This document shows, one piece after another, positions 39,458 to 41,944 of a stretch of 64,000 nt of DNA. Origin of the DNA: an uncultured Flavobacteriaceae bacterium (GTDB taxonomy: Bacteria; Bacteroidota; Bacteroidia; Flavobacteriales; Flavobacteriaceae); the NCBI GenBank assembly GCA_947493175.1, contig CANLQD010000002.1:620001-684000 (forward strand). Reading direction: 5' to 3'. Position 1 is the stretch's first letter, and each line of letters begins with the position of its first letter. The position numbers and the translations under genes were made by a program. The notes beneath the pieces are model-generated. The model was not told the DNA's origin. It was given only the letters and a program-made list of their open reading frames with translations, and did no database searches.

Positions 39458-40156
39458 CTATAAACCAGTACAGACCAAACCTGTTAGTATCGCAATACCA
39501 AAACTAGTGAGGGTTCCTATGAGGATGTATTCCGTTAGCTTTCGATTGTTGCTCTCTTTTAAATCGTTGAAACGAAAAACAGATTTAGCGGTTATCAATA
39601 GCCCTATGGCCTCCCATTTTCCAAGAAGTATAAAAAGAAAGACAAAAAGACGCTCGATGATACCGATGTACTTTCCCGCATTTGGTAATGATTCATGATC
39701 TAATTCAATTTGGGCCGACATCCGTTCCAAAAGCTTTCCCATAATAATCGCTGTAGGAAAACTCACGAAAACTGCTCCAGCGACCAACTGCCAATCAATA
39801 CGTTCTGATAGCGTTATGGTATGCTCCCAAAAATTACCGTAATAAGCACAGATATACAGCACCAAAACATGTAATAGTTGATCAATGAAAAACGGAATAT
39901 TCCCGTGTTTGAAAAGAGGAGACGTATAGAGTTTCAACAGGTCGATTACATAGTGCGACACTGCAATCAATAAGGCAACTCCCCAATACGACAAATCCCA
40001 TAACAATAAAAGAATAAGTAAAAAATGAATCAGCACATGCAGGTATACATATTTTGACTTTATTTTATGCTTTTCTTTATGAAGTACCCACAAATTGGGC
40101 TGTAGTAAAAAGTCTCCGACAAGATGGGCGAGAAATAGTTTTACAAATAGGGTCAT
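39458..40156 (-). CDS. DUF3307 polytopic membrane protein
   Basis: 232 residues with about five or six hydrophobic segments. Polar residues recur inside the membrane: H11-x3-D15 (HLVGDFLLQ), H40 and H44, H68-x3-D72 (SHYVID) and D92-x3-H96 (DQLLH). This His/Asp spacing resembles the YdjM/DUF457 family of presumed membrane metal-dependent hydrolases, which suggests, but does not prove, a metal site. Its ATG overlaps the satD stop (ATGA), so translation is coupled. DUF3307 is, from memory, a recurrent neighbour of SatD in bacteria; the role is unknown. Confidence 0.85.
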   Translation of the reverse strand: MTLFVKLFLAHLVGDFLLQPNLWVLHKEKHKIKSKYVYLHVLIHFLLILLLLWDLSYWGVALLIAVSHYVIDLLKLYTSPLFKHGNIPFFIDQLLHVLVLYICAYYGNFWEHTITLSERIDWQLVAGAVFVSFPTAIIMGKLLERMSAQIELDHESLPNAGKYIGIIERLFVFLFILLGKWEAIGLLITAKSVFRFNDLKESNNRKLTEYILIGTLTSFGIAILTGLVCTGL

Positions 40157-40764
40157 GGGGTCATTTCTTTAATAATAATGTTATAGTAGTCTAGAAGTTC
40201 CAACACCAAGTCTAAACGTGCTCTTTTTTGTCGCTGGCTCACAGCTGATTGTTGAATGCCCAATTGTTGGGCGATTTCTTGTTGTGAAGTTCGGGGGTTT
40301 TCCAATACGAGTACTACGATTTCTGCAGAAACAATACTCCAGTCATCCATAAAATCGAGGGCGAGCTTCAAAGGTAAATTGAGTGTGCGGTCATAGAAAT
40401 CATTGCCCGTTGCCACGATGAGGTTAATCTTATCTTCTTTTAACGATTCAAAGGTACGTCCGGAACGCTGATAGGCCGAACCATTCGACTCGCTTACCCC
40501 TACCCCTACAAAGGTTTCCTCACCAATACCGATACCCATACGAACATCGAGTCCTTTTATGGTCTTTATCAAAGCTTTGATCCGTATTGCTACCTTCAAA
40601 GCCTGATCTATGGGTACTCTTAGTTGAAATTCATCGCCTCGGTAAATCTCCCAGTCTTCTGGGGAATCGCCTAATTCAGAAAAATATTTCTTCAAAATTC
40701 CCAACCATTCAGTAGAAGAATAGTTTTCAGAGTTTATAATATCTCCTGTAATAACTGCTATCAT
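40153..40764 (-). CDS. SatD-family protein: palm-like domain plus helix-turn-helix
   Basis: 203 residues from ATG 40764; a TTG at 40776 lies inside the operator and is rejected. The N-terminal part has TGDII (Asp 8), then IYRGDEF (42-46), then VRMGIGIG (74-81) and AYQRSGRTFE (97-106). The order and spacing resemble GGDEF/class III cyclase palm domains: first metal Asp, GDE/F hairpin about 36 residues later, SIGIA-like strand, and the final GR turn. Residues about 159-183 (TSQQEIAQQLG, then SAVSQRQKRA) form a helix-turn-helix. SatD is annotated as a family, named from Streptococcus mutans, without known biochemistry. Autoregulation is suggested by the operator upstream. Confidence 0.85.
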   Translation of the reverse strand: MIAVITGDIINSENYSSTEWLGILKKYFSELGDSPEDWEIYRGDEFQLRVPIDQALKVAIRIKALIKTIKGLDVRMGIGIGEETFVGVGVSESNGSAYQRSGRTFESLKEDKINLIVATGNDFYDRTLNLPLKLALDFMDDWSIVSAEIVVLVLENPRTSQQEIAQQLGIQQSAVSQRQKRARLDLVLELLDYYNIIIKEMTP

Positions 40765-40765
40765 T

Positions 40766-40844
40766 TTATAAGTCAAAATGCTAATATAGAAAATTATAAG
40801 CTATTTAGCTAATATTTTAATATTATAAGTTAATATGCTTATAA
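40766..40844. promoter_or_regulatory. Three tandem imperfect palindromes, likely SatD operator
   Basis: Three copies of TTATAAG, 7 bases, GCTnATA(A/T): 40766-40787, 40794-40815 and 40823-40844, spaced 28 and 29 bases. The third copy is nearly a perfect palindrome (TTATAAG...GCTTATAA). The first ends 2 bases before the satD ATG. Regular spacing and dyad symmetry mark a cooperative binding site for a dimeric helix-turn-helix protein; SatD itself is the obvious candidate. Confidence 0.7.
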
Positions 40845-40874
40845 CTAAGCTATAGAAGCGAAACAGCTTATTTT

Positions 40875-41327
40875 TTAAAACCATCTTCTGACCTGCACAC
40901 AATACTGCTGATATTCCTTGCCGAACAATGTGGTAAGCGCCTTTTCTTCCGGAAGTATTTGAAACTTATTCATATACCCTACAAAACCCGCCGCCGCAAG
41001 TGTATTAAAGGCGTTGCCCAACCATAATCCCCAAGCCAATAAAACCAGTAACAAAGCCAAATACATAGGGTTTCGGGTATAGCTGTAAAGTCCGGTGGTA
41101 ACGAGAGAGGAGGCTTTGGAAGGCAGTGTGGGGTCTACCGTAGTCTTGGCCCTGTAAAAGTGAAGCAAAGCAATGGCACCGATCAAAAAGGCCAATCCCG
41201 ATAACCCGACCATCAAGTAACGTCGCCCAAAAAAGTCGAAATATCCAAAGGGTAAAAACGTTGCGAGCAAGTACATCAATCCAAAAAAAATAAGGAAGAT
41301 GAGTATTGGAGGTATTTTTAACTTCAT
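40875..41327 (-). CDS. Isoprenylcysteine carboxyl methyltransferase (ICMT)-like membrane protein
   Basis: 150 residues with four hydrophobic segments. The C-terminal half carries the ICMT/PEMT SAM motif: LVTTGLYSYTRNPMYLALLL (about 83-102) and the EEKAL...FGKEYQQYC block (about 128-143). Members methylate lipid or small-molecule acceptors in the membrane; the acceptor here is unknown. It is divergent from rdgB with only 26 bases between start codons, so the rdgB promoter overlaps its 5' end. Confidence 0.88.
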   Translation of the reverse strand: MKLKIPPILIFLIFFGLMYLLATFLPFGYFDFFGRRYLMVGLSGLAFLIGAIALLHFYRAKTTVDPTLPSKASSLVTTGLYSYTRNPMYLALLLVLLAWGLWLGNAFNTLAAAGFVGYMNKFQILPEEKALTTLFGKEYQQYCVQVRRWF

Positions 41328-41340
41328 TGCATAAAATTAG

Positions 41341-41348
41341 TATTTTTG
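41341..41348 (+). promoter_or_regulatory. -7 element (TATTTTTG) placed directly before the rdgB start
   Basis: An exact TAnnTTTG ends 5 bases before the ATG at 41354. Since initiation normally falls about 5-7 bases downstream, the rdgB transcript would begin at or next to its start codon. Confidence 0.55.
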
Positions 41349-41353
41349 ACCGT

Positions 41354-41944
41354 ATGCAACTTGTTTTCGCCACCCACAATCAAAATAAATTCGAGGAGGT
41401 ACGAAAAATACTCCCATCACACATTCAATTACGATCGCTTACCGATATTGGCTGTGCTACAGAAATTCCCGAAACAGGAAAAACGCTCGAAGAGAACGCA
41501 AAACTCAAAGCAGATTACGTTACCAAAAAATATGCCCTACCCTGCTTTTCTGATGATAGCGGACTCCTTGTCGATGCGCTCAACGGTGCCCCGGGTGTTT
41601 ACTCAGCGCGTTATGCCGGGCCTCAAAAAAACGCCAATGACAATATGAACCTGTTGCTAACGGAGTTGAAAGGGGTTGCCAACAGGGCTGCCCGATTTAA
41701 AACCATCATTGTACTGAACCTAGGTGCTGCCTCCCATATGTTTATGGGAACCGTGGAAGGAACGATAACGACCGAAAAAAGTGGTTCGGAAGGGTTTGGC
41801 TACGATCCCATATTTAAACCAAAAGGATATGACCAAACCTTTGCAGCGCTTCCCCTAGAAGTAAAAAATACTATTGGCCACCGTGGACAGGCCATTAAAG
41901 AACTTCTTGCCTTTTTAAAAAACGCCCAGAATGAACAACGTTAA
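41354..41944 (+). CDS. rdgB: Non-canonical purine NTP pyrophosphatase RdgB/HAM1
   Basis: 196 residues from ATG 41354 (MQLVFATHNQNKFEEV); the open frame upstream crosses the divergent gene and the promoter. The enzyme removes dITP, XTP and similar bases from the nucleotide pool. Family motifs: FATHNQNK (about 5-12), FSDDSGLLVDALNGAPGVYSARYAG in two parts (about 66-90), and SEGFGYDPIF (about 147-156). Its 3' end overlaps the next gene by 14 bases. Confidence 0.96.
   Translation: MQLVFATHNQNKFEEVRKILPSHIQLRSLTDIGCATEIPETGKTLEENAKLKADYVTKKYALPCFSDDSGLLVDALNGAPGVYSARYAGPQKNANDNMNLLLTELKGVANRAARFKTIIVLNLGAASHMFMGTVEGTITTEKSGSEGFGYDPIFKPKGYDQTFAALPLEVKNTIGHRGQAIKELLAFLKNAQNEQR

What the first reader, a model, noticed from the sequence alone, without database searches (positions are those of the whole stretch)
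40153..40764. SatD looks like a GGDEF/cyclase-type palm domain fused to a helix-turn-helix
Seen: Asp in TGDII (D8), RGDEF (42-46), a VRMGIGIG strand (74-81), AYQRSGRTFE (97-106) and a C-terminal helix-turn-helix. Known: GGDEF and class III cyclase palms carry a metal Asp, a GG(D/E)EF hairpin about 40 residues later, a SIGIA-like strand and a terminal AK..GR turn, in this order. Inference: SatD may make or bind a nucleotide signal and couple it directly to DNA binding. I know of no description of such activity for this family.
Basis: partly seen in the sequence, partly recalled or inferred. Interest (0 to 1): 0.75.

Follow-up and report, generated by a model that had tools for sequence, protein, structure and literature searches.

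The report
SatD: cyclase-like fold on spaced operators
The little-studied protein SatD keeps two aspartates that line up with the metal-binding pair of nucleotide-signal enzymes, in a predicted enzyme-like fold joined to a predicted DNA-binding end, and it likely controls its own gene and an almost always neighbouring membrane-protein gene through palindromic DNA repeats that recur every 28-29 bases in front of satD genes in many bacterial groups.

Summary
Structure prediction gives a palm fold (pLDDT 95) whose best solved-structure matches are GTP cyclohydrolase III, Cas10, class III adenylyl cyclases and GGDEF domains. Profile comparison supports homology to cyclases and GGDEF. D8 and D44 are invariant in 61 of 61 aligned relatives found without a motif bias, as are S12, G43, Q47 and G95; E45 is not (49 of 62). 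So the motif is D...S / GDxxQ, not GGDEF. Two things were not foreseen. First, satD is almost always beside a membrane gene whose constant part is a C-terminal 'GxxIGxLER / AKSxxRF / EYxLxGTLxS' module without a Pfam match in the partners tested; DUF3307 is only one of its optional front halves. Second, satD promoters carry tandem palindromes with a fixed 28-29 bp pitch (31 of 92 non-redundant loci; 3 of 661 other promoters), whose sequence differs between SatD lineages; two SatD paralogues in one genome have different ones. Best reading: a nucleotide-handling autorepressor coupled to a membrane effector. Nucleotide binding, catalysis and DNA binding are untested. A Panoptes-like guard system is the boldest reading.

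The parts
40153..40764 (-). satD gene, 203 aa, predicted palm domain + helix-turn-helix
   Evidence: ORF and Pfam SatD/Sigma70_r4; AlphaFold2 model pLDDT 95.1, pTM 0.92
40405..40764 (-). predicted palm domain (residues 1-120): E2-10 H18-31 E38-41 E45-50 H52-67 E73-81 H96-111 E115-118
40741..40743 (-). codon of D8, invariant, end of strand 1; predicted metal ligand
   Evidence: 61 of 61 aligned; aligns with the Asp of FxDI in class III cyclases
40624..40638 (-). GDxxQ motif (residues 43-47, G D E F Q) in the strand 2-3 hairpin; D44 predicted metal ligand
   Evidence: G43, D44, Q47 each 61 of 61 aligned; D44 aligns with the second metal Asp of class III cyclases
40162..40341 (-). C-terminal helical part with sigma70-r4-like helix-turn-helix (residues 142-201)
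39458..40156 (-). partner membrane protein gene, 232 aa, start overlapping the end of satD by 4 bases
   Evidence: Pfam DUF3307 on residues 3-106 only; AlphaFold2 pLDDT 82, all helical
39497..39679 (-). constant C-terminal module of the partner (about residues 160-220: GKYIGIIER...TAKSVFRF...EYILIGTLTS)
   Evidence: G161 I164 G165 E168 R169 K191 R195 E209 L212 G214 T215 S218 invariant in 63 aligned partners; in a wider set of 142 stretches G165 136 of 136, E168 135 of 135, R169 135 of 135, K191 133 of 134, R195 132 of 133; seen in the four plasmid loci translated, one of them archaeal
40766..40787 (.). operator-like copy 1 (TTATAAG..GCTAATA); the least palindromic of the three (under 14 of 22)
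40794..40815 (.). palindromic operator-like copy 2, 28 bp from copy 1; 16 of 22 positions self-complementary
40823..40844 (.). palindromic operator-like copy 3, 29 bp from copy 2; 16 of 22 self-complementary
40853..40878 (.). possible decayed fourth copy (73% to copy 2)
   Evidence: weak

Best explanation
SatD has two invariant aspartates that line up with the metal pair of class III cyclases in a predicted palm fold, and it is likely a nucleotide-binding autorepressor that would sit on the palindromes repeated every 28-29 bp in front of its own gene and thereby set the dose of its membrane partner. Shown by calls: the invariant residues, the operon pairing, the repeats and their fixed pitch. 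Predicted: the palm fold and the helix-turn-helix. Inferred: each palindrome binds a SatD dimer through the C-terminal helix-turn-helix; palms of neighbouring DNA-bound dimers meet, as palms do in class III cyclase and GGDEF dimers, and a metal-nucleotide held at D8/D44 stabilises that contact. This would explain why the pitch is fixed while the operator sequence is free to drift, and why the active-site residues do not change. A shift in the nucleotide pool (or turnover by SatD itself) would loosen the array and raise expression of SatD and the membrane module. The module's invariant charged residues (E168, R169, K191, R195, E209) lie near ends of predicted helices and could form one cluster at the cytosolic face, so SatD or its nucleotide may also act on the module directly.
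Against: No Foldseek PDB hit reaches E 0.001 (best 1.3e-3), and hhalign probabilities are 63-71%. No ligand, activity or DNA binding has been measured. Operator and recognition-helix similarity correlate (r 0.51; partial r 0.23 given palm identity, 0 of 2000 permutations; 38 of the 56 loci with an array score), but palm identity does as well (partial 0.24), so this does not separate cognate recognition from common descent. 61 of 92 representatives show no lag-28/29 repeat at the strict threshold, although 56 of 92 exceed 99% of shuffled controls in a looser palindrome-array score in which the pitch was imposed. The Arthrobacter plasmid locus has a palindrome but no array. Six of the 140 searched SatD loci have no recognised partner although the contig continues. 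Helix-turn-helix residues vary much more than the palm's. The module's orientation in the membrane was not tested.
Confidence: 0.5

Rival explanations
1. SatD is an active nucleotidyl cyclase or polymerase whose product holds the membrane module in an inactive state; the pair is a guard or toxin-antidote system that works like Panoptes (mCpol palm enzyme plus membrane effector).
For: Both acidic positions invariant. Two-gene palm + membrane operon, seldom split: 45 of 48 DUF3307 genes in the window's phylum have an adjacent satD. Patchy spread: 38 of 198 genomes of that phylum by the Pfam profile, at least 61 of 198 once the satD genes that Pfam missed beside DUF3307 are added; 46 of 249 in the phylum of G198 by Pfam. 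In S. pyogenes satD is the only accessory gene (178 of 249 genomes) in the top quarter of the essentiality range (PMC11323703, passages), as expected if losing SatD frees a toxic partner. One genome carries only a truncated partner with no satD beside it (L245).
Against: The surroundings looked at most closely are housekeeping (window; a tsf-pyrH-like neighbourhood in L202, gene names by eye), not defence islands; an Agrobacterium plasmid locus is near toxin-antitoxin genes. PADLOC gave only weak matches, E 0.0017 or worse (5 proteins scanned). The partner is predicted all-helical, without the beta-barrel of OptE. Two apparently intact DUF3307-module genes stand without an adjacent satD (L242, L252; the genome of L252 has a satD elsewhere). 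Recalled, not read (paper not held): non-polar satD mutants of S. mutans were viable. Polar effects were not discussed in the S. pyogenes paper ('polar' 0 occurrences).
Confidence: 0.2
2. The palm is only a dimerisation scaffold; SatD is an ordinary autorepressor that responds to contact with the membrane module rather than to a nucleotide.
For: Often tight translational coupling: the two genes overlap by 4 or 1 bases in 10 of 29 gaps (one search set) and 33 of 77 (one search set), but only 1 of 23 (one search set); the constant module with charged invariant residues could be a docking site.
Against: A scaffold would not need D8, D44, S12 and Q47 to be invariant in both profile-found sets.
Confidence: 0.13
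3. The arrays are bound by another transcription factor, and SatD is not a DNA-binding protein in vivo.
For: DNA binding by SatD has not been shown; the helix-turn-helix is much less conserved than the palm.
Against: The arrays track satD across organisms and contexts in which satD and the membrane partner are the shared genes seen; paralogues in one genome have their own operators. In the 1.04 Mb of the loci the strongest palindromic 28/29 arrays (at least 13 of 14, palindrome at least 0.8) were 6, each within 150 bp upstream of a satD ORF; one run of N was discarded.
Confidence: 0.07
4. SatD is a housekeeping metabolic palm enzyme, for example with a GTP-cyclohydrolase-III-like activity, with autogenous control.
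Against: Rows within one Z unit include Cas10 and a class III cyclase, so the subfamily is undetermined; patchy occurrence does not suit core metabolism.
Confidence: 0.1

Closest known systems
Pfam SatD family (PF16264), named after Streptococcus mutans SatD
   Same: The window protein is a member (30.2 bits, cut-off 29).
   Different: Four papers read in passages give it an acid-tolerance or DNA-binding label, one also an essentiality score; no fold, metal site, operator or partner module turned up in the searches named in the report.
Class III nucleotidyl cyclase domain (Guanylate_cyc, PF00211)
   Same: Predicted fold; D8 and D44 align with the two metal aspartates; highest profile score (34.0).
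   Different: No purine-recognition lysine four residues before the second Asp (I/V/F/L there); fused to a helix-turn-helix.
GGDEF diguanylate cyclase domain (PF00990)
   Same: Predicted fold, hairpin acid, profile score 31.6.
   Different: No GG; E and F of the motif not conserved.
Panoptes: mCpol/OptS with OptE/2TMbeta
   Same: Small palm protein with two acids (OptS Asp6, Asp57) in a two-gene operon with a membrane protein (PMC12657218, PMC12657230, passages).
   Different: SatD has a helix-turn-helix and an operator array; its partner is predicted all-helical; GDxxQ signature; I found no report of SatD as a defence system in the searches named.
Cas10/Cmr2 palm and GTP cyclohydrolase III
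   Different: Sequence signatures differ; SatD is a single palm with a helix-turn-helix. CRISPR genes nearby were not searched for.

Membership tests
Pfam SatD (PF16264) | profile score above the curated cut-off | tested here: met
   30.2 bits against 29
Palm-domain nucleotidyl cyclase/polymerase superfamily | palm fold | tested here: met
Palm-domain nucleotidyl cyclase/polymerase superfamily | two acidic metal ligands, at the end of strand 1 and in the strand 2-3 hairpin | tested here: met
   D8 and D44, 61 of 61 aligned; metal binding itself not tested
Class III nucleotidyl cyclase | purine-recognition Lys in strand 2, four residues before the second metal Asp (role recalled; position as in the cyclases) | tested here: not met
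   position 40 is I 38, V 10, F 7, L 5, G 1, gap 1 of 62
Class III nucleotidyl cyclase | Asn and Arg of the transition state (recalled) | tested here: inconclusive
   an A-R pair in helix 3 of many members (position 102 R 42 of 62) is near but out of register
GGDEF | GG(D/E)EF | tested here: not met
   position 42 is L/R/H/A/E, E45 49 of 62, F46 variable
Panoptes | mCpol with a 2TM-beta-barrel partner | tested here: not met
   partner of the window predicted all-helical; no Pfam match above cut-off other than DUF3307 in the partners scanned
Panoptes | catalytic product that restrains a toxic effector | not testable with these tools
   needs enzyme and toxicity assays
Autoregulating one-component transcription factor | DNA-binding domain in the same chain | tested here: met
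   Sigma70_r4 27.6 bits (cut-off 24.1), HTH_24 27.0 (21.9)
Autoregulating one-component transcription factor | operator-like palindromes at its own promoter | tested here: met
Autoregulating one-component transcription factor | DNA binding and ligand response | not testable with these tools
   needs binding assays

The most novel reading that the evidence does not exclude
SatD is a nucleotide-making palm enzyme that is at the same time the DNA-bound repressor of its own operon, polymerising along a 28-29 bp operator ladder through nucleotide-bridged palm contacts; its cyclic nucleotide keeps the ER/AKSxxR/EYxLxGT membrane module shut, so loss or depletion of SatD's product opens a membrane-active effector: a Panoptes-like guard present in bacteria and haloarchaea.
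Probability: 0.15. Interest if true: 0.92.

Novelty: new variant of a known kind. Interest (0 to 1): 0.76.

Why it matters
The fixed operator pitch makes the mechanism directly testable with a purified protein and a short DNA. It also offers an explanation for a published puzzle: satD scores as essential in the S. pyogenes strains tested, yet is absent from about 29% of genomes (PMC11323703, passages).

Tried and rejected

Caveats on counts: searches list 41 and 53 matches; only the best 30 loci of each were read. Pfam misses many SatD genes: at least 23 genomes without a Pfam SatD match have a satD beside DUF3307 by my own profile or by reading, so the Pfam tallies are lower bounds. The one search set was fetched with the motif T[IV]TLGDEF, so it says nothing about conservation of the GDEF positions and was left out of those counts. 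Of the 25 class III cyclase loci fetched, 2 (L195, L196) were not used and 5 of the other 23 failed length or stop filters; 1 of 25 GGDEF loci failed. Of the nine plasmid records with SatD, four were read.

Full report
1. Observation. The stated coordinates are right but the gene is on the minus strand: 40764..40153, 203 aa. D8, RGDEF 42-46, VRMGIGIG 74-81 and AYQRSGRTFE 97-106 are as written. Pfam assigns SatD (30.2 bits, cut-off 29) and, above cut-off, Sigma70_r4 and HTH_24 in the C-terminal part. Its nearest named relatives are marine Flavobacteriaceae, so I take the window's phylum to be Bacteroidota.

3. Homology. Class III cyclase and GGDEF sequences were taken from other genomes; 18 cyclase and 24 GGDEF extracts passed length and stop filters. 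hhalign of the SatD palm (149 rows) scored 34.0 against cyclases and 31.6 against GGDEF; 60 column-shuffled controls each reached at most 21.1 and 24.4; reversed alignments 14.0 and 13.9; GGDEF against cyclases scored 30.6. So SatD scores about as close to each as they do to one another. In the cyclase alignment D8 falls on the Asp of FxDI and D44 on the Asp of GD. Probabilities were 71% and 63%.

4. Conservation. In 62 SatD ORFs from 60 loci found by profile in two phyla (best 30 loci each), D8, S12, G43, D44, Q47 and G95 are 61 of 62, with one fragment gapped; G81 60; E45 49; W142 54. Position 42 is never G. The signature is D...S / GDxxQ, with glycines after strand 4 and before helix 3. These sit at strand ends and in the hairpin where palms bind metal and nucleotide (superfamily knowledge; the model's coordinates themselves were not available to me).

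5. Partner. The window gene 39458-40156 overlaps satD by 4 bases. Pfam DUF3307 covers only its first 106 residues. A partner of the same family lies directly downstream of satD in 29 of 30 loci (one search set; 1 contig edge), 74 of 80 (one search set; 2 edges, 4 without) and 23 of 30, with 5 more upstream and 2 without (one search set). In reverse, 45 of the 48 genomes of the window's phylum with DUF3307 have satD beside it: 22 by coordinates, 22 of the 25 regions read; the 3 others are two DUF3307-module genes without an adjacent satD (L242, L252) and one truncated partner (L245). What is constant is the C-terminal module: 12 positions are invariant in 63 aligned partners, and in 142 stretches G165, E168, R169, K191 and R195 hold in all or all but one. 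Partners of 104-113 aa are little more than the module (L005-L019); others carry a different membrane front half. Pfam gives nothing above cut-off over the module in the ten partners scanned. Of nine plasmid records with SatD I read four: a haloarchaeon, Sphingomonas, Agrobacterium and Arthrobacter; all four have a partner with the module. The partner model is all-helical, pLDDT 82, without an informative fold match.

6. Operator arrays. Reading the bases before satD in relatives showed palindromes repeated two or more times, of different sequence in different lineages. Tested on 148 upstream regions, with lags 18-45 scanned, repeats of at least 12 of 14 occur at lag 28 in 30 and lag 29 in 27 regions, 0-2 at each other lag, 0.1 expected at 28 and at 29 from shuffles. 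After reduction to 92 loci below 60% protein identity, 31 keep it; 1 has it at lag 24/25; of 661 other promoters from the loci and the window 7 have it, and 4 of these are the same satD intergenic region seen from the divergent gene. The 148 include 7 loci fetched through DUF3307, which are also satD loci. Perfect 8+8 palindromes: 39% against 3.4% in shuffles. A looser array score, which imposes the pitch, puts 56 of 92 above 99% of 276 base-shuffled controls. Two plasmid loci fetched later (Sphingomonas, Agrobacterium) reach 12 of 14 at lag 28 in 200 bp; the haloarchaeal one reaches 11 at lag 29, below the threshold, with palindromes visible by eye; Arthrobacter has no array. In the window the copies start at 40766, 40794 and 40823; copies 2 and 3 are 16 of 22 self-complementary, copy 1 less.

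7. Who binds them. SatD's is the recognised DNA-binding domain of the operon. Operators differ with SatD: recognition segments of the type SE.AVYKN go with TTcAACC..GGTTgAA, QSNVSEA with TATCTGC..GCAGATA, NRDQIWKRR with TGTTTCA..TGAAACA. Two genomes each hold two SatD paralogues: L010/L013 (NRDQIWKRR) with TGTTTCA sites at 29 bp and L111/L112 (SQSNVSEALKR) with TATCTGC sites at 28 bp. Statistically the link cannot be told apart from common descent (partial r 0.23 against 0.24, 38 loci). In four genomes scanned, exact pattern matches occur only at satD; within the mismatch limits G080 has a second pair, also 28 bp apart, in a region that looks phage-like by eye.

8. Mechanism. The fixed pitch with free sequence points to protein-protein contact between neighbouring DNA-bound SatD dimers; palms in cyclases and GGDEF proteins meet around nucleotides (established for those families; recalled). 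I infer that a metal-nucleotide at D8/D44 bridges neighbours and tunes repression of satD and its partner. Fold and helix-turn-helix are predicted; the invariants, pairing and arrays are shown; nucleotide, DNA binding and effect on the partner are inferred.

9. The guard reading. Panoptes joins a small palm enzyme (OptS, Asp6 and Asp57) to a membrane effector that kills when the signal is lost (PMC12657218, PMC12657230; passages read). In S. pyogenes satD is the single accessory gene in the top quarter of the essentiality range, present in 178 of 249 genomes (PMC11323703; passages). That is what an antidote would show. Against it: a recalled report of viable S. mutans satD mutants, housekeeping surroundings in the loci looked at most closely, and two partner genes without an adjacent satD. 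I give it 0.2 as a rival.

10. Literature. Full-text searches for SatD with GGDEF (0 papers), SatD alone (318 papers, 30 listed, mostly unrelated uses of the abbreviation), DUF3307 (1), sat genes (19, 15 listed), SatD family/PF16264/domain (1), satD with streptococcal transposon work (5 listed, none with the word satD) and SatD with cyclase (5, 4 listed, chemistry) gave no description of a palm fold, operator array or partner module in what I saw. I read passages of PMC11323703, PMC10326533, PMC12005413 and PMC5786311; PMC10783072 had no occurrence of the terms asked. Only openly licensed papers are held, so this is not proof of absence.

Noticed in passing
L227:3539-3586 (G080:C1:418038-418085): A pair of SatD-type palindromes (1 and 2 mismatches) exactly 28 bp apart, the only ones found outside satD in that genome at up to 2 mismatches, lies in a region with DnaC-like and DnaA-like genes that looks by eye like a prophage replication module, before a short lipoprotein-like reading frame; a mobile element may have borrowed the host operator.
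   Followed up: partly
L010/L111 (G054) and L013/L112 (G163): Two SatD systems in one genome: one with a module-only partner and TGTTTCA operators, one with a DUF3307 partner and TATCTGC operators.
   Followed up: yes
L245:1922-2392: A truncated DUF3307 partner with no satD beside it, between unrelated genes, suggesting joint decay of the pair.
   Followed up: no
L242:1869-2639 and L252:1537-2223: Two DUF3307-module genes (genus g40) without adjacent satD, beside a ThiF/MoeB-like gene (by eye); the genome of L252 has a satD with a module-only partner elsewhere (L018).
   Followed up: no
L200:4013-8459 (Agrobacterium plasmid pAt): satD and a module-only partner lie near HipA-domain, HEPN-nucleotidyltransferase and antitoxin genes as annotated.
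   Followed up: no
L198:3974-5391: satD and DUF3307 with a 4-base overlap on a haloarchaeal plasmid, with palindromes about 29 bp apart in front by eye (lag score 11, below the threshold).
   Followed up: partly
window 41306-41944: A HAM1/RdgB-like NTP pyrophosphatase gene (family recalled, not scanned) lies two genes upstream of satD on the other strand; no link to SatD was tested.
   Followed up: no
SatD residue 32: Asn at the end of helix 1 is 45 of 62 (G in the window protein), 24 residues after D8; KpOptS has its base-selecting Ser30 24 residues after Asp6 (PMC12657218 passage). Possibly a base-recognition position.
   Followed up: no
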